DNA of 64,000 nt. Source: Halichondria panicea. Taxonomy: Eukaryota > Porifera > Demospongiae > Suberitida > Halichondriidae. Positions 3,895-59,516 of this stretch are shown piece after piece (the stretch's first letter is position 1; the number at the start of each line of letters is the position of its first letter). A program made the position numbers and the translations under genes. The notes beneath the pieces were generated by a model. The model searched no databases. It had not been told where the DNA came from and saw only the letters and a list, made by a program, of their open reading frames with translations. The DNA lies in assembly GCF_963675165.1 (NCBI RefSeq), contig NC_087380.1, positions 6,084,071 to 6,148,070 on the forward strand, read 5' to 3'.

Positions 3895-4943
3895 CTACTG
3901 AAAGTAAGTGTAAGCGGGGGAATCGATGCCTAAACGAGTGTTAACCCACTGGCTTGTAGTGATCATGTTCGTTGTTGGGAGGTTTAATCCTTCAGTTAAG
4001 CTAGCGGCGTTGAGGACATCTGTATAGAGGTTTAGTGCAACGTAGGGGTAATGTTTGCACTCGGGGCGTAGTATGATAGAGGGGGTTAGGACCACACGGT
4101 TACAGGGGGCGGAGGAGTTACATTCACAATGCTGTTGGGCCAACTGTGGATGGGAACAAGCAATTATATAATCATGTTATCTCTTTTCTTCACTTAGTAC
4201 ATTAAAGAAAGCTGTATAATTATTGTTTAGGATTAAATGCACTTTCTATGAGGGTCTAATTTCTCACCACTGTTTTGTAATCGCTAAGCACAGCTGTGAT
4301 GAGATCGTCAACTCCTTGCATTTGATCTCGTGGCTCGTCTTGAAGCTGATTGGGTGATTGTGAAGCCAGTCTGGCCAGATCAGTATATCCCTGGAGCGCA
4401 GCCATCGAATTCCAAATGTTGTTGTTGCTGCTATCAATGCCGTATGCTTTTGTGATCTCTGGTGTGCTGCACTGGTGCTCTAGATCAATCTGCAACAAGG
4501 AAGATGAAGGTTAATTAACTAGCTCTACATTATTTTGGTTGTAGTTAATAAATTTAAATGTTTACTCTTTTTATACTGGAACAATAGACTAATTATTATT
4601 AGCCACTTACGAAATTTCTGTAGCTTCTTTGCACAATTTTACTGTAATCATCGAGCAGAAATAATCCTTTAAGCAGATAGCCAGCAGCCACTGCAAACTC
4701 GGGACCTTCGCCAGGTGCACTGCAGTTAAACCCTGAGGCTGAGAGCTGAGATTCAGCGATAGCAGCAGGTTCTTGTGTGGGTGTTGAATTGGTGGGGCTC
4801 GTAGTGTTGTAGCTTTCAGCTATGCTTTCCGTTGTGTTTGTGATCAGCTCTCCTGCACTTTCTGTGTTTGGTAGTGGTGCTGCAATGGCTCCACATAATG
4901 CAGACAGCACAACAGCAAAGCATAGGATAAGGTTGGCATTCAT
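3895..4943 (-). CDS. Secreted family A protein A1 (3 exons)
   Basis: Exons on the minus strand are 4943-4611, 4489-4268 and 4143-3895, giving 267 residues. Both introns (121 and 124 bases) have GT-AG ends and fall between codons (phase 0). The start MNANLILCF opens a clear signal peptide ending near GAIAA. Residues about 30-60 form a Ser/Thr/Asn-rich stalk with several N-glycosylation sequons. Then come three helix-like segments and six cysteines (one in exon 1, one in exon 2, four in exon 3, including an HCEC pair). The start is fixed by identity with A3 and A4 and by a TATA box 112 bases upstream. No known family recognised. Function unknown; a secreted signal or effector is inference. It appears intact. 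Confidence 0.85.
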
Positions 4944-5054
4944 GATGAGATTGGGGGTGTTGAATTTTTTAAAGAAATTTCTGTTTTTTCACTTCGTCAC
5001 AAGTAGTTTACAAGATTGTAAAGTTTTCATGCTCTTCCATGATAAAGAAACTCG

Positions 5055-5062
5055 TATTTATA
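5055..5062 (-). promoter_or_regulatory. TATA box of gene A1
   Basis: TATAAATA on the minus strand, followed by an AGTTTCTTTATC-like block that recurs before A3 and A4. It lies 112 bases before the ATG, the same distance as in A3. Confidence 0.7.
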
Positions 5063-5270
5063 CAGATCTAGAGAAACCTTTCCAGTAGAGGTACTAGTGG
5101 AAATGAAATGCGGTTCTTCTTGGGTTTCTTGGATGTTTCGCAATTGTTTATGGATTAGGTTGCCGATGATAATAACTATATAGGAGGTCATAATTGGACA
5201 GTTATAGACATACAGGAGCACATGAAAACATCAGCCCAAGCTCCTCTTACAGAGAGTCCTCTTCAAACAA

Positions 5271-7164
5271 CCATGGCAGTTGAAGAGTCTCCAACTTTGC
5301 TGCATAGTCAGACCAGACTCACCTCCTATGCATAGGGTGTCCCAGATTTAGCACCCAGTCCCTTGTCCCCAAAGGAAACTGCCATTAACCTCAGATATCC
5401 CGGATTTTCAAGGTTGCTTCTCTGAGCTGGGCTACTAAGCTCCAATAAAGTTTATCATGCCTGGAAAAGCTTGGACTTGGAACCATTGAAAACAATGAAC
5501 AAAAACATAACTTAGCTCCTTACCAGATACAGAGCTCTAATAAGTGGCGGGGCTCATTTGCCTGCACAATTAAGAATTACATCATTATTATTTGAGCATG
5601 TGCAGTGAGACTATAGTGAAGCCACAATCATTGAGAGCTGAGCAACAATTATATCTTCTGTTAGGAAAGTATGGAAAATATGAATTGTTGATTATGTGCT
5701 TAAATTATTGTGAATTCCTCAAAATTTGCCTCCTATAGCGGCCAGCCACTCGAGGCTAACGCCCCCGTGTTGTCCCCGAAATTTGGCTGGGGAAGTTGGC
5801 ACTTATGCTGATATGACAGGTGTCTCCGTACGTGTGTGCGTGTAGCTTTACTTTGTGTATACATTCTTGTTTCCTACTCCACGTCAGCTTCTCAATAAAC
5901 AATAACGTCTGTTGTTGGGAAATCTCTAGTGTTCGTGTGAAATTTCACTTAGTTTTAAAGTCTACCTCCCTGAAATCTTTGAGAGATAGATGCAGTCTAT
6001 TTTTAACTATAGGCTGCATTCATATTAAATGAGGTGTGAAGGTCATTAATATTAACAGCTTTGATGGTGCTATGCCATTTTTGTTTCTTCCGAGTAGTTC
6101 TTATACATGCATGAACACAGAACATGAACTGTTTGAAATCATGTTGTTAAATAATTATGTCAACAATTTGGATATACGTGAGTGATATACCGTTGAAGTA
6201 TTTCTATGGTACTTGGTCACCAAATTTGGATGTGGAAACAAGTCTAGAGAGGTTACAATAACTAAGGCACCGTAGCTTTGCTCTTAAGCAACGTTTCACT
6301 TTAATCGTTTGTGGTGATGTCGTCCTACAATGATTTTTGTTAATCCTATAGCCATACTTGACGATGCGTAGGAGCATATGAGGGGATGAGCGTCTTATTA
6401 TGCGGATTCTGTATCGTCTAGCTATGTACAAATCATGCCATATATGTAAAACCGCTAAGTGCTGCTGACATTTTTCATTGTTTACGATTATTAGATCCAA
6501 GCGCGTTATCAACCAGACATCTACAGAGCACTTAGCATATTATAAACAAGGAGTGTGTGGCATAGACGATAGTGAGTCCGCATAGTATACTATGCATAGT
6601 AAGACGCTCCATCTCCTCATGTGCTCCTGGTATTATGAATTGTATGTGGTGCATGCACTCTATTTATGCATCGTTGGCGTCCTTGTAGTCATATACGTTC
6701 ATCGTAATCTAGTCAGACGTTATCGTATACATCTATCTGTAAGGTCGTACTTTGGGAGGGAGTTCCTCCAGTTCCAACTCTAACACTATACGCTAACCCT
6801 AACCCTATTAGGCCACTGCGATCGATATATTAACTGTAGGCCCTAAATGTGCGTGTAAATGTGTGGTGCAGTGTATCCTGTGGCTACATGAATGACTGCA
6901 TGTAGTCGCACACTTTCATATTCCTCCGGACCTAAATAGCAACCTGTTGGGGATTTATTGTATAGTATATAGACTATGTCATTTTTAGTTTGATAATGGT
7001 TTGTGTGTGTATATATGCATGTGCATGCTTCAATGTCCTTCAATTTCAATTACTATTGACTCTTTTCCAAGAAACGATTGTTACCAAGGCTTTTCCTTAT
7101 GTACCATTTGTCACGGTTCAATAGTATATCCTCCTTGTTCGAATAGCTGATAGTTGCCTGGGAA
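5271..7164. other. Intergenic spacer between units P1 and P2
   Basis: No gene seen. 5813-6790 is an inverted copy of the 39245-40480 repeat block; long stretches match on the opposite strand, such as 5813-5975 with 40310-40470. 6791-6806 has two and a half CCCTAA units, too few to call telomeric. Confidence 0.6.
5813..6790 (-). repeat. Inverted copy of the 39-40 kb tandem repeat
   Basis: Matches 39245-40480 in reverse orientation with small indels. The shared blocks include the segments around AAATTTCACTTAGTTTTAAA and ATTTGGATGTGGAAAC. It holds only short, unconserved reading frames. Confidence 0.7.
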
Positions 7165-9485
7165 ATTGTTAGGTCATACGTGATCAGAGCCCACATGTTA
7201 AATAATTGATGCTCGTCTTTCAATTGTCTTCCTTACTAACTTCCACCAACCCTTTCTCCACTTAACCCTTTCTAAGTTTTCCCGTTTTAGTATTTAGTCT
7301 CCTTGTTCCAATAACGTACTGCTTTTCAATTACGACTTCCATGCAGTCTTAGCATCTCCTCTTTGCTCCCTACTTCCTACAGTATGATAATTAAGTTCGT
7401 TTCTGCATGAGATCCCCCTTGAGTACATTTTGCTTGTCAATACGTATTTCCTGCTTTGGTCGCTAAGCTAAGCTATACAAGTGGAAAATGTGTCATTGTC
7501 TTGTGCATTAGAATTGGATATTGAAATGCACGAGTGCAATGTATCAAATAATGCCATTGGAGTGACGTCAGGTCCGCAGGCCCTGAGGGCAATCCGCATT
7601 ACATTGCTCCAGTGCTATAATTGGTGGTCAGGCAACAATTCTCATTACGATCTGAGCTCACTGCATGATAGCCAATGTATAGATACGTTTAATGATTAGC
7701 ATAATTATATCGAGTCTGGTGTAAGGGGTAATTACGTTTCCTGTGTTAATTAGGCAATATCAGAAGCCATATATGTCCACCATTAGGAAGCAGCCAAAAA
7801 ATAAGCAGAATGTCATGGTCTATCATTAAGACGCCGTATAACTATAATTGTACGTTTACGTGTTTTGCTTCGTTGTTATTTTTTATGTAAAGCCCAGTAT
7901 GTATTGAGGGTGTTTATGTTTCGTAGAGAACACAGCCAGGACAATTAATTGAGTGGGCAATGTTGAACCTTTATACAATATTTTATCTGGGCTAATTGGA
8001 GTATGACTGCATGCATAGCATGAAAAACCCCCTGCGATATTTACATTACGTAGTGGAAGATATGTGGATTGCAGCACTCATCATCAACAATGTTTTCCTA
8101 CTACATTCCTGCCGTTCCCCCAGCTGCACTTGTGTGGATGCATCCTCACATGGTGACTATTCCTTGAAGGGAGATCATGTCGTATGATATCAAGTTACGC
8201 ACTGTGATGCACTGTGGGTAGAAGTTTGAGATCAGATATAGCTCAATGCTTTACGTTTATTGTACACTCATTATAGTTAGTTGTGTCCATTACCACTTTT
8301 AATTAAGGCTATTTACACCAACGTTTTTTCAATCATTTTTTAGCCAATATTGGGATAATTTGGTAGGGGGGCACCAAGAGAATACAGGTTGTAGATGAGG
8401 CACTTACTAGCAATTAACTGCTCAATCTATACCATGCAGCTAAGGATGCAAATACTTGTAATTGCACGACTCGAGGACCTAAACAATGAAGCTCTACGTA
8501 CAATGTATACATAAACTGTTATGCAATGATGGAGACGGATGGGACAGGGAGGATTGTGAACGAGGAAGTATATTATGGTCATGTGCATGAGGGGAAAACG
8601 ACTTTACCTTGCGTGCTGTTTGAAGAGGAAACTATACTTGATTCTGTCCTCACATGGACTATAGCTTAGAGAAAGCTGATATTGAGAACTTAGAGGCTTC
8701 ACATTTAATATCAAGGATTCTGTTTGCAAACAGCTTAATCACTTAAACTACCATCAGCTGATTTTGGTGGTTTTGTACAACCATACAAATGAATGCCTAG
8801 GGCATGATTCAGGTTGCACACACACACACACACACACACACCACAAGGTGCATGCTATTTCACTGAGTATAAAAATTTACTCCCTTAGCGTAATTGGAAA
8901 TCCCATATCCTATAGCTCAGTATCACGTACACCACCTGTTTCCGGTAGATCAATTGCTGTTTTGTTTTGGCACCTGCTTAGTTGGCGTGCCTTCATTGCT
9001 CTGTTACAACTTTCCCCTTCAGGGTTCCATCATGTGACCCATTCGATCGTGAATATGTGTTTGTTTAATTGATTGCCACTTTTTGTACTAGGGGAAAACC
9101 CCAACGTACTTTCATATGATGTAGATGCATGTAATGTGAATCCCTTGAGGTGCCTGGCTTGTGTCTAAAGGGGAATTTCCCTTGAGATGAACACACATGT
9201 GTAGTATTTCACAAGAGCTCAAAAGTGTCCCCTACTATACTAGTAATAGGGATTCACGAGTCAAAAGTATTCTCCATGGATGGTCATCTAGCTGTGCACT
9301 GGGACCCATGGAATTAAGATATGAACTGACGTGTGTATTAGATAATTAATACTTTCGATACACATACTTAACTAGAGCACTAAAGTGCAAACTCTCGGCC
9401 AGCTAGTGACATGATTAAGAAACCATATATAAATGCAGTGCATGTAGTCTACATGTAGTGATGTATGACTGAGCTGTACGTCTAG

Positions 9486-10059: not shown

Positions 10060-10104
10060 GGTCAAAGGGTCAAGGGGGTATTTTAATGATGGTCAAGGGG
10101 TCAA
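10060..10104 (+). repeat. Left subterminal GGTCAA repeats
   Basis: Direct copies of GGTCAAAGGGTCAAGG and GGTCAAGGGGTCAA just inside the left TIR. Each copy is a pair of GGTCAA half-units. They probably bind the element's transposase, by analogy with subterminal repeats of other DNA transposons. Confidence 0.6.
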
Positions 10105-16084: not shown

Positions 16085-16942
16085 TTACTGAAAGTAAGTG
16101 TAAGCGGGGGAATCGATGCCTAGGCGAGTGTTCGTGCAACGTAGGGGTAATGTTTGCACCCGGGGCGTAGTATGATAGAGGGGGTTTTTTTCTTCACTTA
16201 GTTTAGTGAAGAAAGCTGTATAATTATTGTTTAGGATTAAATGCACTTTCTATGAGTATTTTTTAGGGTCTAATTTCTCACCACTGTTTTGTAATTGCTA
16301 AGCACAGCTGAGATGAGATCATCAACTCCTTGCATTTGATCTCGTGGCTCGTCTTGAAGCTGATTGGCTGATTGTGAAGCCAGTATGGCCAGATCAGCCT
16401 ATCCTTGGAGCGCGGCCATCGAATTCCAAATGTTGTTGTTGCTGCTATCAATGCCGTATGCTTTTGTGATCTCTGGTGTGCTGCACTGGTGCTCTAGATC
16501 AATCTGCAACAAGGTAGAGCCTGGTTAATTAACTAGCTCTACATGTGGTTGTTATTATGTTTACTCTTTCACTATAAACATGAAACAATAAACTAATCAT
16601 TATAGCCACTTACGAAATTTCTGTATAGCTTCTTTGCACAATTTTGCTGTAATCATCGAGCAGAAATAATCCTTCAAGCAGATAGCCAGCAGCCACTTCA
16701 AACTCGGGACCTTCGCCAGGTGCACTGCAGTTGAACCCTGAGGCTGAGAGCTGAGATTGAGCGATAGCAGCAGGCTCTTGTGTGGGCGTACGCGTTGAAT
16801 TAGTGGTGGTCGTAGTGTTGTAGCTTTCAGTTGTGTTTGTGATCAGCTCTCCTGCACTTTCTGTGTTTGGTAGCGGTGCTGCAATGGTTCCATATAGTGC
16901 AGACAGCACAAAAGCAAAGCATAGGATAAGGTTGGCATTCAT
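16085..16942 (-). pseudogene. Family A pseudogene A2
   Basis: Exon 1 (16942-16614) and exon 2 (16503-16282) align with A1, but the gene is broken in several ways. Two extra bases near the end of exon 1 (in AGCTATACAG) shift the frame. A TAT codon in exon 2 has become TAG, seen as CCTATCC on the plus strand near 16400. Exon 3 (about 16188-16085) has lost roughly 90 internal bases and also its start, including the splice acceptor. The TATA box and signal peptide are still intact. The decay is specific to this unit, since the three sisters are open. Confidence 0.9.
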
Positions 16943-17024
16943 GATGGGATTGGTGGTGTTGATTTTGCAGACTTCTTCAAAAGTAGTTTGCAAGTTTTCA
17001 TGCTCTTTCATGAAAAGAAACTCT

Positions 17025-17032
17025 TATTTATA
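17025..17032 (-). promoter_or_regulatory. TATA box of pseudogene A2
   Basis: TATAAATA on the minus strand, in the same setting as in A1, A3 and A4 but only 83 bases from the ATG because of small deletions. Confidence 0.6.
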
Positions 17033-17189
17033 CCAAAATTCCAGCCAAATCTCACTGCGAAACCTTTCCAGTAGAGCTAACTCTAAGGAAATGCAGTTCT
17101 CTATGGTGTCGAAATTGTTTGTGGATTAGGTTACCGATACTATAGTTCTTAAGCCCCGTTTCTTGTAGAATATATCTAGTATTACTGTG

Positions 17190-17335
17190 TAGATCAAGGT
17201 GGTAGAGGTCATAATAAATCGCTTACTGTCCCGTTTGCAAACTACACTGTGTCTATCATTTTCACTGCATGTATTGCATAACTGAAATTACTCATGCATC
17301 ATCGCACCATAAGGTTATTCATAGCAGCTTTGATA
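17190..17335 (+). repeat. Left inverted repeat beside gene C
   Basis: Matches the complement of 20240-20410, including TTACTGTCCCGTTTGCAAAC and TCGCACCATAAGGTTATTCA. With the oppositely oriented A units outside, it makes the junction of the large palindrome. Confidence 0.75.
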
Positions 17336-17429
17336 AGGAAATAAGTATTCGCTGCATGGGATTTTCTGATTGCAGAATATATTGGTCATACATGCATGGG
17401 GGAATGGAAGAAAATAGCTTTAAAATGAC

Positions 17430-17437
17430 TATAAAAA
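17430..17437 (+). promoter_or_regulatory. TATA box of gene C1
   Basis: TATAAAAA 101 bases before the ATG, with a TATATATA run just downstream (17446-17452). The spacing matches the other secreted-protein genes. Confidence 0.6.
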
Positions 17438-17537
17438 TGCTCATTATATATACCTGTCTCAGTTTACTTCTTCTCAACAAACAAATCACTTCAGAGAACT
17501 AACCGATCACTTCAGAATCTATCTATATCAGCTGATA

Positions 17538-19107
17538 ATGGCGCCTAGAGTCATCATCATTCTACTATTCAGTCTTACTTACTCAACTATTACTCTAACA
17601 GCACCTGTGTCTCGATCACAGAATAGTGTCGAAGATGGTAGACCTCAAAGACAGACCTTAAGAATACCTAGGATTGCCTCGGTGATGGAGGCTTCAGACT
17701 CATCTGATGAAAACTGTCCAATATATGGTGACGGAGATTGTGGAAAGATTCAAGATATGCTATGTGCAGCAGAGAAATTTCAGCAAGAGTACAACAAGAG
17801 GCCGGTATGTTCAGTTCTGTAAATTAGTGTTCTTTGTTGTATAGTACATGTACAAATGTGTGTATACGTATTGTAATAAAAGTATGTCCATTTTCAGAGC
17901 CAACCAGCCTCCATGCAATCAGTGGATTCCTGTGCAAGAGTTGATTTCACTCGTACCAACAACATAAGACATTTGTACGATGACTTCAAGACCCTCTCCT
18001 CTATTTTCATGCAAGTGGGACAGGACTTTTCATTTCCAAACTTTGCCGATACTCAGTGTCAAATCAGGCACATCAACTCATATCTGGGAGAAACGGTATA
18101 GTGCATGTATCATAATTATACATAGTGCTAAGCCTAAAGAGAGTTACCTCAGCTATATATAGATTTGTGTATCTTGCAAGGTTGTTTGGAAATTACTCTT
18201 TTAATTATTTGACATGCAGGTTGACTATTTCTGTGAGTACAACAAGACTGAGTGTGGAACAGTTCGTTACGTCTGCAACAACATTGATTTCATCCCCAAT
18301 CCGACATTTAACTACACAAGGGATCAATTTGATGAGGAGTGTTTTGATAATCTCCTTAACTCTCTCCAGATAGCTCTTAACCTGCTCCATCACGTCTATT
18401 TCTCATCTAGTTCGGCAGTTTCAGGACAAAGTATTTGTGCAAGCCATGGTGCTACTTGCTTCAGAGCATCACACGACCAGACAGCCTGGTTGGAATCATT
18501 CAGAGCAACCCTCAGAGAAAGACAACAAAGTCTGCCATCTTCACTTGTAAGTATATAGAACAAGTAATTATAAAGGAGACCACTTTGCAGCATAAATTGC
18601 AGTACACTAACAGTCATGGAGCACAATTGATCATTAATTTATTTATTTATTAGATTACTCACAATGATGTGGAATGCCGACCTGCTATTGTATTTGAACC
18701 GTCGGTGCTCAACTTGTACTCATCCCTGGTTGAGACGAGTCGAGAGCTGTCCACTGTATCAAACCAGAGTGACCTTGTTCAGCAACTGAACTCAACTGTT
18801 TTGCCTCTTCTTCATGATGTAGTGGTGAGTCTTTCGTGTAAAATACTGTTTTCTTCCGCACTTAACAATTTTGGTGCTGGAAATCATGCTCATTTTGATC
18901 TTTCAGGCACCAGTTGTGCGTGAGAAAACAGCATTGAATGAACTGAGTATCACCATTCCTAGCAGCCCGCAAGAACACTCTGAAGATGAAGTAATGGCCA
19001 GCTGCCTTGTAACTCGTCTGAGTATAACGTACGAGGCCCTAATGCACGATCAGCTCCGTCACCATTGGACAGTACTGAACAGAGCGAGAGATACTGGCTG
19101 CGTCTAA
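17538..19107 (+). CDS. Secreted family C protein C1 (5 exons)
   Basis: Exons 17538-17804, 17898-18095, 18220-18546, 18654-18824 and 18907-19107 join to 387 residues. All four introns (82 to 124 bases) are GT-AG and phase 0. The protein opens with a signal peptide (MAPRVIIILLFSLTYSTITL) followed by a basic, acidic-then-cysteine-rich N-terminal part. The mature part has 14 cysteines, six of them in exon 3, and sequons such as NYT and NST. Hydrophobic heptad-like stretches (NNIRHLYDDFKTLSSIF, FDNLLNSLQIALNLLHHVYF, LLHDVV) suggest helices. No known family recognised. It lies at the centre of the palindrome of A units. Relics at 20181 and 44229 show that it is also a duplicating family. Confidence 0.85.
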
Positions 19108-20993: not shown

Positions 20994-21988
20994 ATGAATG
21001 CCAATCTTATCTTATGCTTTGCTTTTGTGCTGTCTGCATTATGTGGAGCCATTGCAGCACCGCTACCAAACACAGAAAGTGCAGGAGAGCTGATCACAAA
21101 CACAACTGAAAGCATAGCTGAAAGCTACAACACTACGAGCCCCACCAATTCAACGCCCACAACTGCTGCTGCTATCGCTCAATCTCAGCTCTCAGCCTCA
21201 GGGTTCAACTGCAGTGCACCTGGCGAAGGTCATGACTTTGCAGTGGTTGCTGGCTATCTGCGTGAAGGATTATTTCTGCTCAATGATTACAGCAAATTTG
21301 TGCAAAGAAGCTACAGAAAATTTGTAAGTGGCTAATAATAATATTTATTTCAGGTTATTAGAACACTATAATTATGCATGCATGTATATATATAGAGCTT
21401 GCTAATTAACCAGGCTCTTCCTTATTGCAGATTGATCAAGAGCACCAGTGCAGCACACCAGAGATCACAAACAACAACAACAACGACATTTGGAATTTGA
21501 TGGCCGCGCTTCAGGAATATGCTGATCTGGCCCGACTGGCTCTGCGATCAGCCAATCAGCTTCAAGACAAGCCACGAGATCAAATGCAAGGAGTTGACGA
21601 TCTCATCTCAGCTGTGCTACACGATTACAAAACAGTGGTGAGAAACCATACTCTTAGCAAATCAATTATTTACTATACTAAGTGAGAATATAAAATAGCA
21701 TCATTATCATAATTAATTGCTTGTTCCCATCCACAGTTGGCCCAGCAGCATTGTGAATGTAACTCCTCCGCCCCCTGTAACCGTGTGGTCCTAACTCCAT
21801 CTATTATACTACGCCCCGGGTGCAAACATTACCCCTACGTTGCACGAAACCTCTATACAGATGTCCTTAAGGCCCAAAACATAATAGAAGAACTAAACCT
21901 CCCGACGACAACGAACATGATCACTACAAGCCAGTGGGTTAACACTCGTCTAGGCATCGATTCCCCCGCTTACATTTACTTTCATTAA
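20994..21988 (+). CDS. Secreted family A protein A3 (3 exons)
   Basis: Exons 20994-21323, 21431-21637 and 21737-21988 give 262 residues. Introns of 107 and 99 bases are phase 0. The signal peptide and the six-cysteine pattern match A1. The glycosylated stalk lacks the QEP present in A1 and A4, and exon 2 is five residues shorter than in A1, where a run of Asn codons differs. Exon 3 starts at LAQQHCEC. The stop codon overlaps AATAAA (TTAATAAAG), so the 3-prime untranslated region is probably very short. Intact, and about equally related to A1 and A4. Function unknown. Confidence 0.87.
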
Positions 21989-22497: not shown

Positions 22498-22794
<297 letters not shown>

Positions 22795-23212
22795 AGAGCA
22801 TGCACATCTTTAATTCAAACATACTTATTAACAATCATTGAACATACAGAAGCCAAACAAATTCGGCTATAGCAGGACAAGGATTTCAATTTCCTGGCCA
22901 GGAAATGACTTATTGTACAGCTATGTTATTGTCTGCTCAGACACCAACTATACATAAACAGTTGATCTAAAACTGGACCCAACGCATTTTCCCTACTCAC
23001 AAAACACACTAACACATATACTCACCCATTTCCTGGAATGAAAAACATACTGTTAGTTCAGTTGCAAGGTAGATTGTCTCGGTGAGATCAGGTCAAGGGT
23101 ATGTGATTATATACGTCCCAAAAAGGGCTACAGTTATTAGGAGATGGTTATTTTAGTACCAACGTGTACATATAATTATACATGTTTATTTCTTGAATAT
23201 AGAACTAATATA

Positions 23213-26300: not shown

Positions 26301-28236
26301 ATACTATCGAATAAGGCAGGATGACTGTGACAAAAGTAGTTCTGTAATGAAAACACCGCGGATGCTGATGCCTCGATGGATATGTCAAAGCTACATCTAT
26401 TTAATACCGTATAGCAGGTATAATTCACTTTCGCGGAATGACCGTTAGAAAGGTTTTCACGGCTTTTTACAGCATTGCATGGTATAAATGTTCATTTATA
26501 TTAAAATACGTATTTAATCGGCCTTGAATCGAGGCTAGACAAATATGTCCAAACGTCGACCTTTGAACCTTGCAAATAAAATCACGTTTTAACAAACTGT
26601 CAAATCACCATTAATTTTTCTTCAGAGCAGTTTGAGATGAGAGCTAGCTAGCTATAGCGCTAGCTAGGGCCTGGAGCCAGGGGGAGCAAACTGCAGTCGC
26701 TGCAGTGCTGGCCCCCTTGTGGTGAACTATGTATCATCTACTATCTATATGGTACAAGTATTAAAATAGTCTTAGACTCTAGGCCTATATGTACACAATA
26801 CTGAGCTAGCTGGTATAGATACATGGCTGATGTAGATCTAGTATCAGTAATTTTTGTAAAGACAGACCCTTTGCACCACCTCCACTCTTGTTTCTTCTTT
26901 TCCACTATGTCCATTTACTCCATACGTTTTACTATCTCACTGTTTTTTCACTATTATTTTCCCAGGCTGTACTGTACAACTGAAAACAATCGAGATCTGC
27001 AACGTCTCGTCTACAAAGAGTCTGTTATCTGTTGTCGTTCACTTCTCATTTCTGGATTCTTTACCCATGTTCCAGTGCATCATTACTGTGTGGCTTGCTA
27101 CAGTACATATTTTTTTTTATCTTCAGTGGAGTTCTACTGGGGCTATTGGGACAGACCAAGCATTGTTCTTGGGACCGATGCTATAGGACAAATCAGACTG
27201 CTTGTATACAGTGAAGAGGCGAACACAGATATATATATATATATGGCAGAATGTTCTTTCATAACTTTATGATTTTTTTGTGCAATCAAATGTTTGCTGT
27301 ATTAATCTTTAGTCTTACAACATGTTGGGATGAGCACATTAATTTTAATACCCTGCATGGATCTAAATGCATGCATGTAAAGTCTCATGTGCTTTGCGCA
27401 TAATCCTCTGGAGCCACCCCCACATCAGAGACAAAATTAATTATAAGGTCAAAGTTAATGGTCTTTAGTTTAGGCTCTGGGCTCGGGCAGAGGAGGTAGG
27501 ACACGCATCACGTGCGATTTAGAAAGGATTTGTGTATGAAAAGTAAACAGCAGCGATTCCACGGTAATTTCCTCTAAAATTTTAGCTATCATGTAGTGAA
27601 AGGATATAGTACTAACTTATGGATCAGCGATCCCAGTGGGATCCCGGCTCAATAGCTTGAAATTCACCATCAAACCTAGTGGTTTTTACTGTACATTTTT
27701 ACTGTGCATCCGAGGGACAAGATCATCAACTCATCGACCCCTACGTGACGCAGACATTACTCTTGCAACGGAAGAGGGCCTGATCCCTCAACTGTAACTG
27801 TTTCCAATAAATTATTATGTACATGTATACATGCTCTTTTTCCTATTATTATAATAATTTATTATTACCACACAAAAAAAACATAAGCTACTACAGAGAG
27901 CTGTCTATAGGGAGGTTAACTAAGGTTGGTTGCCATCATCCATAACAGTTACAATATTTGAGATTGCTAGAAGGTGATGTGAGCTTGCTAGAGAGCACAG
28001 CAGTAGATCTACCACAGGCACCATAGCTAGCTAGCTACACTGAAATATAAATGTAAGGAAAGGTTAAAGGTCAAGAGCCTAACGTAAACATTGTATGCCA
28101 CACATTCCATTGCCATGTGACACACGTCGCGTCCTGGGCTCTCGGTATAGGTACGTAGTAGACTACTAAACAATGGCCAATACTATATACTAGCTTCTTC
28201 AGTGCTCGATTATTTTTAGCTCTAATAAGTAAGAAA
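26301..28236. other. Spacer between unit P3 and the glycosyltransferase-like gene
   Basis: Holds half of a CCGTATAGCGGG-type MITE (26407-26500) and otherwise unique sequence. 26823-27272 is open for 149 codons, but the translation is Phe/Tyr/Ser-rich, and two pyrimidine-rich AG sites inside it (TTATTTTCCCAG near 26965 and TATCTTCAG near 27127) suggest exon edges instead. I cannot assemble a convincing product. Confidence 0.4.
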
Positions 28237-29169
28237 ATGAGGCTACTATTGTTGTTTTTGCTTGGCAGTGTTATACTACTATTAATGTATACCAGGATTC
28301 CGATTAAGCAATTCAATGATTCTCGAGTTCAATTTGTCTATCTAACGCAAACAGAAAACTGCATTCCAACTTATCTAAAGTCTCCTGAAGTGATCGGAGA
28401 CTCTGAAGCATGTCAGTGTGATGTCATTATCCTCAGTTACAAACATAAGTGCGCTGACACATCATTGCCTCATGTCCAATACATATTTAACTCCAGTCTG
28501 ACCTGGACCGTTGGAAGAAACTTGCTTTACAAAGCAGCCATGAAAAGGGAAAAAAAGTACCTATACTACATTTTCATGGACGACGATGTTCAACTGATAA
28601 AGGCGGATAACAAAAGTACACAGAATCCGTGGAGAATGTCCGAGGAGTCTCTCAATATCTTCCAACCTGCTGTAGTTTTCTCAATTTTTGGGGGCGAAAA
28701 AAGGATCCAGAGTGAAACTCTTCCCACGCTATTGAATTGTGAGCTCACAGGATACATACAAGTATACGACATGGATGCAATCTTTAGCGCCTTTCATTAT
28801 CAAGCGATCGACCACATACTTCCATACACAACGAAGTACGATTCAGTGAGCTGGTGGTTCTCACAAATGTATATTATCATCAAGTGTAACATCCTATTTA
28901 AGGATGAAGCAGTTATCGATTCTCGCATTAGAGTAACAAACCCAAAGCACCGCGATTACTCACGGAAATATAGGTTGTTCATGCAGGATGTCATTAATCA
29001 AATTGTCTCTGACATTCGATCAGAAACACCAGAAGAGTATCGAAAATCAGTTGAGCCAATTTTGCAGCAATGGTTAACAAATCGTAAACCAAAGGGTTTG
29101 TTAGGGCGACAAACTTGCAAGCGTGATCTATTTGTACATCCATATAGGCCTTACGAGAATCTGGCTTAA
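28237..29169 (+). CDS. Type II membrane glycosyltransferase-like protein
   Basis: A single exon of 310 residues. Residues 2-18 are a hydrophobic anchor (LLLLFLLGSVILLL), preceded only by MR, giving the type II topology usual for Golgi glycosyltransferases. The segment TWTVGRNLLYKAA (about 89-101) followed by YYIFMDDDVQL (110-120) has the GRN and DXD-like acidic motif of nucleotide-sugar-binding GT-A folds. Later SWWFSQMYI and a conserved-looking basic C-terminal half complete a compact catalytic domain. Asn85 (NSS) is a sequon. Family and acceptor are unknown to me. The gene lies between the right-hand A units and is not repeated in the window. It has no introns, unlike its neighbours. Length is plausible for a whole enzyme. 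Confidence 0.7.
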   Translation: MRLLLLFLLGSVILLLMYTRIPIKQFNDSRVQFVYLTQTENCIPTYLKSPEVIGDSEACQCDVIILSYKHKCADTSLPHVQYIFNSSLTWTVGRNLLYKAAMKREKKYLYYIFMDDDVQLIKADNKSTQNPWRMSEESLNIFQPAVVFSIFGGEKRIQSETLPTLLNCELTGYIQVYDMDAIFSAFHYQAIDHILPYTTKYDSVSWWFSQMYIIIKCNILFKDEAVIDSRIRVTNPKHRDYSRKYRLFMQDVINQIVSDIRSETPEEYRKSVEPILQQWLTNRKPKGLLGRQTCKRDLFVHPYRPYENLA

Positions 29170-33182: not shown

Positions 33183-33304
<122 letters not shown>

Positions 33305-36300
33305 ATGCACATCTTTAATGCATACATACTTAACCACAATCATGGAACATACAAAAGCCAAACAAATTCGGCTAAAACTGGACCCAATGCATTTTCACTC
33401 ACAAAAACAATACTCGCTATTCCCTGGAATGAAAAACATACTGTTAGTTCATGTTGCAAGGTAGATCGCCTCGGTGAGATCAGGTCATGGGTATATGTGT
33501 ATATATGTCCCAAAAAGGGATACAGTTATTAAAGGAGATGGTTATTTTAGTACCAACGTGTACATATAATTATACATGTTTATTTCTTGAATATAGAACT
33601 AACATACGTAAGCTAGTACACATTTGTAGTAAATGCTGAATGTCAAATAGTTCAGATCAAGCATAGTCAGAAATGTGAGAAGGTTCGCTTACGATCCATC
33701 TTTCAGGTGTACGTATTACGTAATTACCAATCAATACTTACATTCCACGCACTTCAGATTGCTCAATTAAACTAGCCGGATGGATAGATATTCAATTACA
33801 TTATACACAAAATATGTATGGATACTGTTACTTTATCAATACATTCACGAGTACAAAAATAGAAGTTAAACATAGAAACTGAACAAAAAGCATGAACCAC
33901 GTAAACAAATCACATAATCAGGAGACAAACACTTCTGCTCACACAGCATACAAATCACCTCATGCCGTATAGAATGGGGTGAGCTAGCTTCAGTTTCGTT
34001 TACAACACGGTTCTATTTTAGTGTATGTGTACAAACACGCACAACTCACTTCTGTTATATCTATTAATAACTGTCTATCAACAAGACACAATTGTGTACG
34101 TCTTACTCGACCCAGCACAAAGGGGGTATAAGACCACTCTTCTTGACCCAGAGTTAACAACTGCAATCTTCTGTTCGCTATACGCATCTGGACAATGTCA
34201 ACGAGCACATTTCAAGTACAGTTCAATGAATATCATAATTAGTATGGCCGTTTTAATTTGCCCGCTAAATTTATACGTGCACATGAATTAACTGTCTGTA
34301 CTAAACTATGACACACACACCAGGTAGGTCATACAATTCAACTAGGCCAGCTTATGAAATACGTCTACACTATATAATCCAGCCAGAGTGACAAACCCAC
34401 TTAAACGGTAGAAACAACACTACGCATACGCTCTAAACTATATTCACGGCTTCCTCGTTCTAATAACGTCTGTCACCATTTCTAGGTAAAACATCGGAAC
34501 ACTAGACAACGAGTGCCCAGTCAGTAAGCAGGCCCCGAGGTGCTCGTACATGGTTCACATGATGTAATGGCCAACTTAGCTGTTTTCGGGAAATATTTTG
34601 TTACGCCATGCCGTTTATGAGCGTCTAACAATTGAGTACATTTTGTTGTAATAACTAGGGTATTTTGAAAATGGAGGAAAGTGTTGAAACTCCCTTGAAC
34701 AGAGCTGCACTGCTCCTACTAACAAAAGGAATGTAAATATCCTATGGACACAAGTTGATCTGATTACACCTACCATGGAAATACTTGTACAGATTATGTA
34801 GCTTAAAACAGTGAAAACTATCTGCTTCAAAAGGTAAACAAAAACACAGCATGAGTGTACACAAACAATTAGCTAAACCTTGCAACAGAGTGTCTATAGG
34901 TGTACCATGTGCCTACAATACATCTATAGTCTCTACATATAGGAGACTAGGAATTAATTTAATCGTGACGAAATAATACTGTGAAAGCACCATGCACTGA
35001 TCATGTCAGCTGATATCGATACTCACGACTCTAAATGAATTCATTACCATGCATGTACACAGGACAATACCATCGGCAACTAGGTATGACAACAAAATTA
35101 AAAACATTCTGCTAGTTTTCAATCAGTATGCACATGCGCAGTGTTTGTCATTAATTTTTATTCCCAAAAAGTACGAAGTGATATGGCAAATTTTAGTTTC
35201 AGCATAGCAATTACGTGCATACCAAAGTCACTTGTGTTTAAGTAGTTGGATTACCGTAAAGAGGAAGAAGCCGTTTGATGTCAACAAACATCATAACACT
35301 CCATATCTTTAAACACCAAGATATCCATGTTAACAATTAAATGGTCAATTGGGTGGGTCCCCATTAACTAACTTGTACTGCAACATGTCTATACATGCAT
35401 TAATTGTTTTACTTACCCATCTTTCCTGGGGTAGGAAATCATTTTGATGATAAGCCTAAAAAGTATAATTATAGCTAATAGCTTTCATAATTTATAGCAC
35501 CAAAGTATGGCTAAAAAAGCTCGTAAAAAGTGCGGTGTTGTGTAGTAAACCATGCAGCCTTGATATACAATTAAACAAATAGCGTGAGTTATATACAATA
35601 AACGTACAACACTGAATCTCAAACTTCCACCCACAGTGCATCACAGTGCGTAACTTGATATCATACGACATGATCCCCCCTCAAGGAATAGTCACCACGT
35701 GTACAGCTGGGGGGAAAGCAGGAATGTAGTAGGAAAACATTGTTGAATGAGTGCTGCAATCCACATACCTTCCACTATGTAGTGTAATATCGCAGTTAGG
35801 GTTTTTTCGTGCAGTCATAGAATTGTTCCAATCTGGTATTAAGGTTCAACATTGCTCACTTATAAATATTAAATGCCTGGCTGTGTTTAAATCCTTGCAT
35901 GAAAAGAAAGAAAAAACCAACAAACACATACGTACAATAATCTTAAGCAAGTTGGGATATAGACTAGGGTGATCAATGTCTGCTTATTTTTTTAAAAACA
36001 CTACATGTACTACAGTAACTTACACCCGACTCAATATGTGTGCTTACAATATTAACAGGTGTTTATACATTGGCTATCATAGATTGATCTCATGTCATGA
36101 GCATTGTGTTGCCTGACCACCACAAATAATTTATTGGCACTAGAGCAATGTAATGTCCTCAGGGCATTGCACTCGTGCATGCAATGCAATAACTATTACT
36201 AACGCACAATTAAGACATTGACACATTTGCCACTTGTACAGCTTAGCGACCAAAGCAGGAAATATTAACAAGAACCACCACACACAATGTACTCGAAGGG

Positions 36301-38608: not shown

Positions 38609-39130
38609 TTAAATGAACATAATTATACTAGCACAGTCTACTAGAGCAAATTCCTTGTGGCTAACCAGCTTATTCCATACTGCGATTGCATGAGGAAAAA
38701 AGGAGAATTTGTACAACGATGTTCTACATTTGTAGGGGACCAGAGAGAAACAGTTAACTGTTCTGCTGCTGTACATCATATTTCTTTTAGTTGTTGGATT
38801 GTTTGGGAAGTCAGTCAGATTGTGAAGTATTTTGAACAGGTGGCAGAGCACAGCAGCAAGGCGCCTCAGCTGCAGAGAAGGAAGCCTGGTCAAGGTGAGC
38901 AATTCTTCACTTCTCAAATTCCATTTCTTCAAACAGACTCTCATAGCGAATCTCTGGACTTTTCTAGATTGTTGATTTCCGACTTCTGAAATGGGTTCCA
39001 CACAGAGGAAGCGTATTCAAGATGTGGTCTCACAGAGGATGTATACAACTTTAATAGTGTTGTTGGAGAAGAATTGTCGTCATAGTCGTTTTGCAGTTCT
39101 AAGAGTACTTTGAGGTCGCCGAAAACATCA
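38609..39130 (-). pseudogene. 3-prime end of a non-LTR retrotransposon reverse transcriptase
   Basis: On the minus strand the translation runs TLLKLYTSSVRPHLEYASSV, then WNPF and LEK, and after a one-base deletion VQRFAMRVCLKKWN with LTRLPSLQLRRL and FFPHAIAVWNKLV. This is the thumb and C-terminal tail of LINE reverse transcriptases of the CR1/Jockey kind, where a domain ending in RPHLEYAS...WNP...LE.VQRF is characteristic. The frameshift lies near 38967. Everything upstream of the tail is missing, as expected of a 5-prime-truncated insertion. Confidence 0.8.
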
Positions 39131-39244
39131 AGACCGTGAAAAATGGGAAGGTTTCACTACGGTATTGGGTGTAGCTACTAAAATTGAGGTCAGTGGGTGG
39201 GTTAGGGGGTTGGAACTGGAGGAACTCACAAAGTACGGCCTAGC

Positions 39245-42169: not shown

Positions 42170-43025
42170 ATGTCTTCTACATCTTTTATTGCTACAACTT
42201 TGGTGATGCTTGTCAGTTATGGGATGGCACAACCTACAGACTCGGCATTATTCAATCTCTATAGCGGAGTGCTTGTGCAGAGCCAAGTATTGGTAAGTTC
42301 AGTCTGCATGCATGCAAAGTTAATACTGTACTTGAGTATAGTCCTGCTTATAATGTATTGCATGTTCTATAATAAGTGACAAATGTAATTCGAACTAACT
42401 TGAAAGGCAATGATACAAATGATGATTGATCACTATAACTTGCAGCTTCGTGCACAAGACAATGTGAACAAGTCCATCATTCCCTTCAAAGATGCATGTA
42501 CAGTTTGTGGCAGCAAAGCTTTTTACAACCAAATGCTCACTGTTGCACTGATACACAACAAGTACCAGACAGCTAAAGCAAGGAACTCAGATAGTCAACT
42601 ACTACCAGGATTGGCAGCTGTACTGAACAAACTTTCATCACAAACATGCTATTTGGTAAGCACAGTAAGTACAATCAGCTCATTGTAAAAAGTATCTACA
42701 CATTACTGCATGCATATCTAATCCAAAAGACCGATAATATAGTTATCGCACTAACCTGTCATTATACTTTCTGCAGCTGAAAATTGACCTTGGAGATGAA
42801 TTTGACTGCAACATTACCGCCATCCTGAGATTGAAAGCAATACTTGAGATTCACTTTGCTACGGAAATAGCACAGGAGATGATGGACGTTTATGCAAAAT
42901 CAAAGATGAATAACCGGCTTCAAGATCATTCAGAAGACTGGATTAACTGCAATACATGTAACAGTTCAACACTTCCAATACTCAAAAAACTTTATTTTCC
43001 TGAATCCCTTACATGCAGATGCTAG
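42170..43025 (+). CDS. Secreted family B protein B1 (3 exons)
   Basis: Exons 42170-42292, 42446-42655 and 42777-43025 give 193 residues. Both introns (153 and 121 bases) are phase 0. The exon 2 acceptor is taken as the CTTGCAG before LRAQDN, by analogy with B3. A signal peptide ends near SYGMAQ. The mature chain has eight cysteines: CTVC and TC in exon 2, then FDC, NCNTC and a terminal CRC in exon 3. Leu/Ile-rich segments (LLPGLAAVLNKL, ILRLKAILEIHFA) look helical. NIT, NKS and NSS are sequons. Nearly identical to B2, which lies inverted 2.7 kb away. No known family recognised. Confidence 0.85.
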
Positions 43026-44228: not shown

Positions 44229-45040
44229 CATGATTCAGTACAGTCCATTAGTGAGAGCTGATCGTGCATTAGGGTATCGTTCGTTATGCTCAGACAAGTT
44301 ACAAGGCAGCAGCTGGCCATTGCTTCATCTTATGCAGAATGTTGTGTGGGCTACTAGGAATGATGCAGTTCATTTGATGCTGTTTTCTCACGCACAACTG
44401 ATGCCTTAAAGAAAATGATTTCTAGCAGAAAATAGAATCAGATTCCAGTTGCAGAAGCAAAGAGAAAAAGTACTGATTATGGCTTTGGTAAGCAAGCATA
44501 CACCAAAGACTCACATGAAGAAGAGGCAGAACAGTTTCTAAACAAAATTACTCTGGTTTGATACAGTGGACAACTCTCAACTCGTCTTAACTATAGGGAT
44601 GAGTCGAGTGGTCTATAGCTCCTTAACTTGCTGTCACATGTACAAGTTGAGCACAGACGGTTCGAAGACAATAGTAGATCTGCATTCCTGAGTAATCTGA
44701 CAATCAATTGTGCTACATGACTGGATCAACATAATACTATTTACGCTGAAAGTGGTCTAGCTACTTAACTTGCTCTTACAAGTACAAGTGCATGCATGTA
44801 GATGGCAGACTTTGCTGTCTTTTCTCTGAGGGTTGCTCTGAACAATACCAACGAGCTAAGTTGTCTGGTGTGTGATGCTCTGAAGTAAGTAGCACCATAG
44901 CTCGCGCAAATACTTTGTCCTAAAACACTGCAGACGTACACGTGGATGAGAAATAGATGTAATGGAGGTTAAACACCATCTGGAGAGAGATTATCAAAAC
45001 AATCCACTAAATTGATCCCTTGCAATGTGTAGATAAAATA
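44229..45040 (-). pseudogene. Family C pseudogene C2
   Basis: Minus-strand blocks match C1 exons in order: exon 3 at about 45040-44810, part of exon 4 at about 44665-44600 (CCGTC.GTGCTCAACTTGTA), and exon 5 at about 44407-44229 (CAGTTGTGCGTGAGAAAACA). Small indels and stops break every frame. Exons 1 and 2 were not found. It lies between the inverted B1 and B2 genes. Confidence 0.8.
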
Positions 45041-45737
45041 ATGCGTGATCACAGACGTCTACCATGTGCGCACGCATGCACACTCAGTATCGTGATATTG
45101 GTGACTGCATGTGTACTATACTCACAGAATTAGAAGTAGTCAACCAGTAAAATAAAACAAATCAGGAATCCCCTCACTCAAAATAGTGGCTTGCTGTGAG
45201 CAGGAGACTAGCTAGTCTTAATCAGCTCTTGTTTGAGATCCTTGCTTGTCTGGCCCCACAAGCAGTACTATTATAATCTGGAGGATCCGTCCAAATTTAA
45301 AGATCGTTAATGACACAAGACACAAACGAATAGAGGGTTGGGATCGAGGCTAGATACCAGCCATCGTGCAGGGCTTAGCCTCGAGACCAGGTTTAATGGG
45401 CCTCGGAAAACGCAACATTCCATCTAGTGTGTGCATGCTCTTTACCGTTTAAAAACCAAATCCGAGTCTCATCTCGGAGTCTCGTGCAGTAAGGATCAGA
45501 ATACCTGCTTAGTAACTTAAGCAATCATCATTTGGGCAGTGGCTGCCTTTGATCAGAACTTGTCATGAGCTGGGTTGACCTTGTACCTATGGCTATGCAG
45601 AGACAGTTAGATAGTGAGTACTGCCACTCATTATTAATAAGTGTATTAAATTGTCATCCAATTAAATATGCATATAGCCTGTAAAAGCAGCAATTACAAT
45701 TTAAAAGTATAATGGTGTCTGACCTATATCTAGATAT
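45041..45737. other. Spacer between pseudogene C2 and gene B2
   Basis: No gene seen. 45335-45405 contains two GCCTCGAGACCAG-like words in opposite orientation, related to the MITE at 47474. Confidence 0.4.
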
Positions 45738-46600
45738 CTAGCATCTGCATGTAAGGGATTTATAATAATAAAGCTTTCTGAGTATTGGAAGTGTTGAACT
45801 GTTACATGTATTGCAGTTAATCCAATCTTCTGAACGATCTTGAAGCCGGTTATTCATCTTTGATTCTGCATAAACATCCATCAAATCCTGTGTTGTTTCC
45901 GTAGCGAAATGAATCTCAAGTATTGCTTTCAATCTCAGGATGGCGGTAATGTCGCAGTCAAATTCATCTCCAAGATCAATTTTCAGCTGCAGAAAGTATG
46001 ACAGGTTAGTGCGATAATAGTCCTTTGGAATGCTAAACCAATAATGTAGAAATCTGTACAATGAGCTGATTGTACAGAACAAAGTATTTGTACTTCTGTG
46101 CTTACCAAATGGCATGTTTGTGATGAAAGTTTGTTCAGTACAGCTGCCAATCCTGGTAGTAGTTGACTATCTGAGTTCCTTGCTTTAGCTGTCTGGTACT
46201 TGTTGTGTATCAGTGCAACAGTGAGCATTTGGTTGTAAAAAGCTTTGCTGCCACAAACTGTACAGTGCGGTGCATCTTTGAATGGAATGATGGACTTGTT
46301 GTTCACATTGTCTTGTCCACGAAGCTGCAAGTTATAGTGATCAATCATCATTTGTATCATTGCCTTTCAAGTTAGTTCGAATTACATTTGTCACTTATTA
46401 TAGAACATGCAATACATTATAAGCAGGACTATACTCAAGTACAGTATTAACTTTGCATGCATGCAGACTGAACTTACCAATACTCGGCTCTGCACGAGCA
46501 CTCCGCTATAGAGATTGAATAATGCCGAGTCTGTAGGTTGTGCCATCCCATAACTCACAAGCATCACCAAAGTTGTAGCAATAAAAGATGTAGAAGACAT
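45738..46600 (-). CDS. Secreted family B protein B2 (3 exons)
   Basis: Minus-strand exons 46600-46478, 46324-46106 and 45986-45738 give 196 residues with phase-0 introns of 153 and 119 bases. Differs from B1 by an extra Asn in NNKS, an extra two-residue PH before CTVCGSK, and scattered substitutions concentrated in exon 3 (for example HFATETTQDLMDV against HFATEIAQEMMDV). All eight cysteines are kept. An in-frame ATG at 46693 would add 31 residues, but the start at 46600 is preferred because it matches B1 and opens the signal peptide. Intact. Confidence 0.85.
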
Positions 46601-53994: not shown

Positions 53995-54003
53995 TATATA
54001 TAA
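53995..54003 (+). promoter_or_regulatory. TATA box of gene B3
   Basis: TATATATAA, 96 bases before the ATG. Confidence 0.6.
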
Positions 54004-54098
54004 GCACAAGTGTTATGATGAGCTTTCATCAGACAGAAGAACAGGAGTGACCAGCTAAAAGATTCAAACTTCAAATTCACTCCACTTCAACAATCACA

Positions 54099-55012: not shown

Positions 55013-57471
<2,459 letters not shown>

Positions 57472-58720
57472 ATGGCCATGGACACAAAAATGAGTTGTTT
57501 GAGCAAACTAGACACTTTCATGGACTGCTTAAACTGCTAATGAGATAATGTTCAAACGAATCCACAAAAAAACACTGTTTTCTAATCGATCTAATCGTTG
57601 CTTTATAGATTCACAATCATTCCCCATTCACCCAAAATGACAATGATAATAAGGCCATTGTGCAATGAAGCTTGTTACATATGGCTTTGATAAGAGGGTG
57701 ATAGAATTACTGTGTTTACGTGAGCTTAAGAGTATCAGGTTAAACAGGTAATATCATATCCTGTGCAATAATCTTTGAACAATGCTGCATTCCTAGAGAG
57801 CACCGCTAAAAAAATGTATCATCAAAATGGAGGGAGTAGCCACTTTCCCTATAGAAGTACACTTAGCCAGGATGGGATCGTTAAGAATGCTGTCATTCAT
57901 ACACATTTACGTCAAGGATTACAGACGTATAAAAATTGCATAAATATTAACAGAAGTCTCCTTACGTGAATAAGAGTTTTCTTGAATGGCTGAGCCAATC
58001 AATGGAAGGAATTGTTACAACACTCAGTCTTACACCACGGCTTGCAACAGTGTGATAATGATACGTAGCGAAGGTCAATGGGTTAATCTGTGCATGGTAC
58101 TCAGTTTTGCTTGCACTCCAGCTCAGGTGATGAATGCATGTGTGTAGCATGCACGTGGACATGTGAAAACCGTGTGGGGCCTTTATGACCTAAACTGAAT
58201 ATAGCTATAGCAGCTGTTTTGAAACTGGACTACAATGAATTAACGATGGACACCATGCATGTAGGGTATAATTTTATTTGTACAGTGGAACCTCCATAGA
58301 ACAGACACCATTGGGGAACAGCCTTTTAGCTGTTATAGAGAGGTGGTCTTCCTTGGGAGGTTTCGATTGCCAGCCATGCACGGGGTGGATCAATGCCATA
58401 GAACCGATTTCTATCATACTGCTTGTCTCGTACATTAGATAGGCCTATACTCTTTCATGCCAGCTGAAGATATTGCATTGGCATTTGTAATAGCAAGAAT
58501 CTCTTTAGTAATATCCTGTTCAAAGGCTGAGTACAAATTTTCCCCATTCAAATTGTCCATGGTTACCACTTTTAAAAGAATTCCACTAGCATGAGTAGCA
58601 TGAGTACAAGCTCCTCAAATTACAATGAGCATGCAGATAATCTCTGGCTGCATGGTGGAGAGCAAACTTGCATTCTTGTATTACCTAATTATTGCTCCAT
58701 ACAAGCTAGCTATAGTGGAG
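57472..58720. other. Spacer upstream of gene D
   Basis: 57478-57665 repeats the 43605-44110 block, and 57690-58180 shares blocks with 63350-63760. 58283-58376 is a CAGTGGAACCTCC transposon-end fragment shared with 19757-19860. No gene seen. Confidence 0.5.
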
Positions 58721-58730
58721 TATATAAAAA
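58721..58730 (+). promoter_or_regulatory. TATA box of gene D
   Basis: TATATAAAAA, 96 bases before the ATG, followed by a TTCAGTCAGTCAGACC stretch that could hold the start site. Confidence 0.65.
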
Positions 58731-58825
58731 GAACATTTCTTTGGTTCAGTCAGTCAGACCAAAACACCTCCAAGAAAACAACTTCTTCGATTGCACAGCC
58801 TATATAAAGCTCACCACTCTCCGAA

Positions 58826-59516
58826 ATGGCTTCTTCAATCCGTATGCTCTTTGCAGCAGCTGTACTGCTATTCACCACCTGCAAGGCAGCCCCCATCGTT
58901 AGGAGACAATCAACTAATGAGTCGGATGCACTAACAAATTATGCTCTAGGACTGATTATTGGAACTCATATTGCAGTAAGTTACTATACAATAGAAGATT
59001 TCTATGGAACACTATTTTATTTAATGCATATGGAAAAATATTAATCCTTGTTTTCTTCTTTAGAATGCCTCACTTGTTGACCGCCTCACAAATCACTCGG
59101 CGAACCTCTCAGAGTCCGCCTTTGGTGCAGTCCGGATCGCTTGTACTCTCCACTCTGGCTACAAGAACATTGACGCTCTCTCACCCAACGACTCTGCTGA
59201 CGCCTTGATTATACTCATTTCTGAGAAGATCCAAGAAGACGCTTGTGAATTGCTCAAGGAAGAAGTTGGTCCCTCTGTTTTTAGTCTGGATTGTGGGAGT
59301 GAGAGTGTGTTTAGTGATTTGGACAACATCTGTGCTCTCTGGGACTACTCGGTCATGGCTCAGTCAAATGCCGACAACTTGAAGGTTGTCACGGGAACTC
59401 GATGCGATTCCGATGAGTCTATGAAGATAAAATGTGACGAATGGATTTGCAATCATAATCTTCAAGACAACGATTCTATTATGAGGGCTAGCCTCACCCC
59501 TGAAGAGTGTCCATAA
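58826..59516 (+). CDS. Secreted family D protein (2 exons)
   Basis: Exons 58826-58975 and 59064-59516 give 200 residues. The single 88-base intron is phase 0. A signal peptide (MASSIRMLFAAAVLLFTTC) is followed by APIVRRQS, where the dibasic RR could be a processing site. The mature chain has eight cysteines in exon 2 (IACTL, DACEL, LDCGS, NICAL, TRCDS, KCDEWIC, ECP). NES, NAS and NHS are sequons. Segments such as DALIILISEKIQEDACELL look like amphipathic helices. No known family recognised. It shares signal, size, intron phase and promoter layout with families A to C, but no clear sequence similarity. Intact and single-copy here. Confidence 0.85.

What the first reader, a model, noticed from the sequence alone, without database searches (positions are those of the whole stretch)
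3895..59516. Cluster of unrecognised secreted Cys-containing proteins with only phase-0 introns
Seven intact genes in four families (A, B, C, D) share a signal peptide, sequons, an even or near-even Cys count (6 or 7, 8, 14, 8), helix-like segments, a TATA box 70-115 bases before the ATG, and introns that all fall between codons (15 of 15 in the intact genes). Phase-0-only structure in short secreted helical proteins is the classic gene architecture of vertebrate helical cytokines. I find no recognised family. A cytokine-like or other immune or recognition effector cluster in an early animal would be new. The structural analogy is inference.
Basis: partly seen in the sequence, partly recalled or inferred. 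Interest (0 to 1): 0.88.

Follow-up and report, generated by a model that had tools for sequence, protein, structure and literature searches.

The report
Sponge cluster of orphan secreted proteins
The window holds part of a cluster of duplicated genes in a breadcrumb sponge that encode secreted cysteine-containing proteins of unknown function; two of the families probably share an ancestor, but whether any of them are cytokine-like signals is still open.

Summary
The gene models hold: seven intact genes in families A-D, 15 of 15 introns GT-AG and phase 0. An eighth intact gene, C3, was missed. The genome is Halichondria panicea; NCBI records match D and C2 letter for letter, and an A paralogue, all named 'uncharacterized protein'. 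The window cuts a cluster of about 190 kb: at least 13 A (11 intact), 4 B, 3 C and 5 D copies. Every paralogue pair that could be computed has dN/dS below 1. Family and PDB searches gave only weak, sub-threshold hits.

C and D are probably homologous (8, 18 and 23 of 3000 shuffles for C1, C2, C3; modest after allowing for 17 pairs tested), with a shared DRW..VCN ending and a similar first intron. A and B are linked to nothing. My best reading is secreted recognition or defence proteins. 'Four-helix cytokine' is neither shown nor excluded.

The parts
3895..4943 (-). A1, intact, 3 exons (4943-4611, 4489-4268, 4143-3895), 267 aa
   Evidence: dN/dS against seven paralogues 0.16-0.71
16085..16942 (-). 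A2, broken A copy (frame lost at the end of exon 1, in-frame stop in exon 2, much of exon 3 missing); low end approximate
   Evidence: (L030)
17538..19107 (+). B1, intact, 5 exons (17538-17804, 17898-18095, 18220-18546, 18654-18824, 18907-19107), 387 aa, head to head with A2
   Evidence: three more intact copies outside the window
20994..21988 (+). A3, intact, 3 exons, 262 aa
31311..32318 (+). A4, intact, 3 exons, 261 aa, 7 mature Cys
42170..43025 (+).
44252..45121 (-). degenerate B-like remnant with several stops
   Evidence: C4:6128322-6129191
45738..46600 (-). C1, intact, 3 exons, 196 aa
54099..55012 (+). C2, intact, 3 exons, 213 aa; equals NCBI LOC135335637
58826..59516 (+). D, intact, 2 exons, 200 aa; equals NCBI LOC135335607

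Best explanation
A tandemly expanded cluster of sponge genes for secreted, cysteine-containing, at least partly helical proteins. They most likely act outside the cell as recognition or defence proteins: made from TATA promoters, secreted, and read by, or acting on, neighbouring sponge cells or microbes. Shown here: open spliced genes, signal-peptide-like starts, phase-0 introns, TATA motifs, tandem expansion, dN/dS below 1 in all computed pairs. Probable: C and D share an ancestor, with D lacking the second intron. Inferred: the extracellular ligand or effector role, inducibility, disulphide pairing, glycosylation.
For: Gene models and agreement with NCBI records. At least 13 A, 4 B, 3 C and 5 D copies over C4:5.98-6.17 Mb. 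dN/dS: A 0.16-0.82 (28 pairs of 8 of the 11 intact copies), B 0.41-0.55 (3 pairs of 3 of 4 copies), C1-C3 0.46, D 0.18-0.40 (10 pairs of 5 copies). C-D: local scores reached by 8, 18 and 23 of 3000 shuffles for C1, C2 and C3 against D; ACxLL in C2 and D, DRW(x0-4)VCN in C2 and the L069 D-relative, and the last cysteine align. Cysteines differ in twos: C1 and C2 share 6 and each has 2 of its own; D has 8, the L069 relative keeps 6. TATA in 8 of 8. All 4 B copies found stand head to head with an A copy (one of the four A copies broken), 0.6-0.9 kb away.
Against: No expression, induction or binding data. No clear excess of NF-kB, STAT, IRF or AP-1 motifs within 500 bases upstream: NF-kB 0 of 9 starts (broken A2 included), STAT 2, IRF 1, AP-1 2. 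hhalign gives no significant link between any two families (best C-D, E 0.088). Selection looks purifying, so there is no arms-race signature. Secreted orphan families are common in animals (recalled) and can be structural or digestive.
Confidence: 0.4

Rival explanations
1. True cytokine analogues: four-helix-bundle ligands that bind surface receptors (the sponge's receptor kinases, or a receptor upstream of its STAT) and trigger signalling.
For: Helical C2 prediction; phase-0-only genes, as reported for IL-10 family genes (PMC12652433) and fish type I interferon genes (PMC4929537) (passages); STAT domain exons in this genome on C11; the H. [quoted passage not shown] many kinase-domain matches on contig C3 (not shown here to be receptors).
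Against: pLDDT 53 and generic helical matches only. The FERM_F2 (JAK) search found nothing, but no control rang either, so it says nothing. CRLF3 is reported absent in Porifera and IL6 found only in vertebrates (PMC6797617, PMC13203501, passages). The two papers also differ on whether JAK predates Bilateria. A and B are not linked to C/D.
Confidence: 0.18
2. Secreted direct effectors (antimicrobial or membrane-active proteins) rather than signals.
For: Copy-number expansion with broken copies, cysteine-containing secreted products, no named relatives in other organisms found.
Against: Mature products of 176-366 aa are large for peptide-type effectors; charge was not computed.
Confidence: 0.2
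3. Reproductive or self/non-self recognition proteins evolving in a sponge-specific way.
For: Tandem, apparently lineage-restricted, secreted; copies diverge moderately.
Against: dN/dS below 1 in every pair that could be computed; no expression or polymorphism data.
Confidence: 0.12
4. Ordinary matrix, carrier or housekeeping secreted proteins; phase 0 and helices carry no meaning.
For: Only 9 independent introns; helical periodicity not above shuffles in B1, C1 and D1.
Against: TATA motifs before all 8 intact genes and tandem expansion are not what one expects of a plain carrier (inference).
Confidence: 0.1

Closest known systems
Helical cytokines (IL-6, IL-10, interferon groups) of vertebrates
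   Same: Signal-peptide-like start, cysteines, tandem clusters, phase-0 introns; [quoted passage not shown]
   Different: No sequence or profile match; fold not tested with confidence; B is long (366 aa mature); receptor side unknown; common descent is not implied
NCBI 'uncharacterized protein' LOC135335607, LOC135335637, LOC135335595 of Halichondria panicea
   Same: D, C2 and an A paralogue themselves
   Different: Names only; the families, the cluster, the C-D relation and C3 are not described in the titles, abstract starts and passages I saw
Insect odorant-binding proteins (six-Cys helical secreted carriers in tandem arrays; recalled)
   Same: Secreted; six-Cys core in C and in D; C2 predicted helical at low confidence
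   Different: The C-x3-C spacing recalled as their signature is absent from the conserved cysteines of C and D

Membership tests
Helical (four-helix-bundle) cytokines | Up-up-down-down four-helix bundle | tested here: inconclusive
Helical (four-helix-bundle) cytokines | Sequence or profile similarity to a known cytokine family | tested here: inconclusive
   No cytokine family in Pfam at E up to 10 for A1, B1, C1, C2, D (three weak unrelated hits, E 0.1-0.16); PDB by sequence: C none, D three unrelated (E 0.088-2), A three (E 0.61-0.89), none named a cytokine; B not run; cytokines are often beyond such searches
Helical (four-helix-bundle) cytokines | Secreted, with N-terminal signal peptide and cysteines | tested here: met
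   Hydrophobic starts with likely cleavage sites and 6-14 mature Cys; judged by eye and a simple script, no signal-peptide program
Helical (four-helix-bundle) cytokines | Phase-0 introns (common, not diagnostic) | tested here: met
   15 of 15 in seven genes plus 2 of 2 in C3
Helical (four-helix-bundle) cytokines | Receptor binding and downstream signalling | not testable with these tools
   STAT exons exist in the genome; JAK FERM_F2 search uninformative
One superfamily A+B+C+D | Detectable common ancestry | tested here: inconclusive
   C-D 8-23 of 3000 shuffles; A-B 462 of 3000; of the other cross pairs the best are A against the second half of B (23 of 300) and C2 against the L069 relative (31 of 300), the rest 70 of 300 or more; halves of B not alike
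Odorant-binding proteins | Six-Cys signature with C-x3-C (recalled) | tested here: not met
   Conserved Cys of D: 77, 111, 127, 140, 179, 199; of C (C2 numbering): 64, 67, 125, 139, 189, 210

The most novel reading that the evidence does not exclude
A sponge evolved, or kept from the animal root, a chromosomal cluster of helical-cytokine-like ligands: C and D as short four-helix bundles with phase-0 genes, and A and B as divergently transcribed partner ligands. These would signal through sponge receptor kinases or the STAT pathway, giving the first ligand side for a pathway known in sponges only from its inner parts.
Probability: 0.18. Interest if true: 0.88.

Novelty: new variant of a known kind. 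Interest (0 to 1): 0.52.

Why it matters
JAK and STAT are reported from sponges, but IL6 only from vertebrates and the receptors IL6R and CRLF3 not from sponges (PMC13203501, PMC6797617; passages). [quoted passage not shown] A tandem cluster of secreted orphan proteins with TATA promoters is a concrete, testable candidate set for that missing ligand side, or otherwise for sponge defence and recognition. The C-D pair gives a start for tracing a deeper sponge superfamily.

Tried and rejected
Internal duplication of B (two A-like halves): suggested by exon layout and a MAFFT alignment, but the halves are no more alike than shuffles, and exon-by-exon scores are weak (best B exon 4 against A exon 3, z 3.3 among 28 comparisons, and not the exon predicted). 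Dropped.

A and C as one family on the strength of exon lengths: no sequence support.

A second locus on C5: the C-like hit (L017, E 0.38) looks non-coding by eye; the A-like hit is a broken exon-1 fragment with frame changes. Chance or relic.

Relatives elsewhere: three protein searches gave 3, 4 and 4 proteins. Three are named Halichondria panicea records; the rest are unnamed pieces whose organism I do not know. In one search only the 8000 candidates sharing most words were scored. A GTDB contig scan with D gave 34 pattern matches and no relative. No other sponge genome could be searched directly, so 'sponge-specific' is not shown beyond that.

Promoter motifs for NF-kB, STAT, IRF, AP-1: single hits, no clear excess. 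PDB matches to the C2 model (ribosomal uS15 pieces, a designed dimer, Dps) are what a low-confidence helical model gives. A kinase neighbourhood on C3 (L071): open frames listed, no domain search made, nothing concluded.

Full report
What was checked. I rebuilt each gene from the sequence. All seven splice into open frames with GT-AG introns, and all 15 introns fall between codons. A whole-genome search with the C2 protein pointed to a further copy in the window, which proved an intact eighth gene, C3, at 42170-43025 (+), with two more phase-0 introns. A2 (16942 down to about 16085, -) is broken, and a degenerate B remnant lies near 44252-45121 (-).

Identity of the genome and outside support. 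The window is C4:6084071-6148070 of a 131.5 Mb assembly. The D protein equals the NCBI record LOC135335607 of Halichondria panicea over 200 of 200 residues, on a contig of 7,813,905 bases, the length of C4. C2 equals LOC135335637 over 213 of 213. An A-family record, LOC135335595, is 89% identical to A1 over its whole length and equals the spliced product of copies L027 and L028. B was found only as single-exon pieces, so its splicing rests on the sequence and on three further copies with the same exon layout. The three records are called 'uncharacterized protein'.

The cluster. Searching the genome exon by exon (the tool says counts are lower bounds) and remodelling the copies gives: A 13 copies, 11 intact; B 4, all intact; C 3, all intact; D 4 close copies plus one at about 44% (L069) in the array. 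An identical D copy lies 0.8 Mb away (L064), next to a piece matching the tail of C2, so probably part of a segmental duplication. Apart from that copy and weak hits on C5, the matches lie between C4:5.98 and 6.17 Mb, A and B at one end, then C, then D. The 4 B copies found all stand head to head with an A copy, 0.6-0.9 kb apart, one of these A copies being the broken A2. Joint duplication explains this; a shared promoter region is possible. dN/dS is 0.16-0.82 (A, 28 pairs of 8 copies), 0.41-0.55 (B, 3 pairs), 0.46 (C1-C3) and 0.18-0.40 (D, 10 pairs); C2 against C1 or C3 is saturated at synonymous sites. By exon, B ranges from 0.17 to 0.80. These are coding genes under mostly purifying selection, with no sign of positive selection at this resolution.

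More than chance? The TATA motif is strong: 8 of 8 intact genes have TATAWA at 66-119 bases before the ATG, against 7.9% of 18,272 stretches of 51 bases anywhere in the window. Phase 0 is weaker than it looks, because the 15 introns are 9 independent ones. Helical periodicity beats shuffles in A1 (0 of 500), D5 (5) and C2 (18) but not in B1 (69), D1 (137) or C1 (286 of 500).

Relations among the families. Local alignment scores of C1, C2 and C3 against D are reached by 8, 18 and 23 of 3000 shuffles. What adds weight: the alignments are colinear; they share an ACxLL segment (C2 and D), the ending DRW(x0-4)VCN (C2 and the L069 D-relative) and a last cysteine; the first intron follows the N-terminal helix-like stretch in both; and where C has its second intron (ACAL|LISK), D reads through (ACELLKEE). 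Cysteines differ in twos: C1 and C2 share six and have two private ones each, D has eight and L069 keeps six. I take C and D as probably homologous. Against this: the profile comparison is not significant (E 0.088), and comparisons of C1 and C2 with L069 are at or near chance (129 of 300; 319 of 3000). A and B show no such link to C, D or each other.

Likely function. Secreted, cysteine-containing, TATA-driven, tandemly expanded, without named relatives in the searches made: the balance favours an extracellular recognition or defence role (0.4 as stated). A cytokine-like signal is the boldest version the evidence allows (about 0.18). Background: JAK and STAT are reported in Porifera while IL6 is found only in vertebrates and IL6R from Mollusca on (PMC13203501, passages). 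CRLF3 is reported absent in Porifera; the same paper, citing others, puts the four-helix bundle in cnidarian ancestors and JAK in Bilateria (PMC6797617, passages), so the two papers disagree on JAK. H. [quoted passage not shown] In this genome STAT exons are present on C11; the JAK domain search was uninformative. Phase-0 architecture is reported for IL-10 family genes (PMC12652433) and fish type I interferons (PMC4929537) (passages). Seven literature searches listed no paper that, by title and abstract start, describes these families or a sponge four-helix cytokine; the library holds open-licence papers only, and only the top rows of each search were seen.

Verdict. The finding is a well-formed orphan secreted gene cluster with clear experiments attached, hence interest 0.52.

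Noticed in passing
   Followed up: yes
16942-17538 and three more sites on C4 (5.984, 6.003, 6.022 Mb): The 4 B copies found all stand head to head with an A copy 0.6-0.9 kb away, so a shared two-way promoter is possible.
   Followed up: partly
C4:6.953-6.960 Mb (L059, L064, L016): Identical D coding sequence next to a piece matching the end of C2, about 0.8 Mb from the window and in inverted orientation; looks like a segmental copy of the stretch from C2 to D.
   Followed up: partly
L069 898-1668 (-), C4:6168-6169 kb: Divergent D relative with a Pro/Thr-rich C-terminal tail that D lacks, keeping 6 of 8 cysteines.
   Followed up: partly
28162-29169 (+): Open frame of 335 codons with an N-terminal hydrophobic stretch and an FMDDDV motif; no significant Pfam match; glycosyltransferase-like by eye only.
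   Followed up: partly
38609-39153 (-): Open frames resembling the C-terminal part of a non-LTR retrotransposon reverse transcriptase (recalled resemblance); no Pfam match for the longest piece.
   Followed up: no
22500-22800, 33190-33330, 57350-57475: Long GA tracts (giving spurious Arg-Glu and Ser-Leu open frames) and a GT/GC tract.
   Followed up: no
L070 about 1400-1600 (C5:4.5414 Mb): Relic of A exon 1 with frame changes on another contig.
   Followed up: partly
contig C3, about 0.87-2.46 Mb: Dense array of kinase-domain matches; could be the sponge receptor-kinase expansion, not tested.
   Followed up: no
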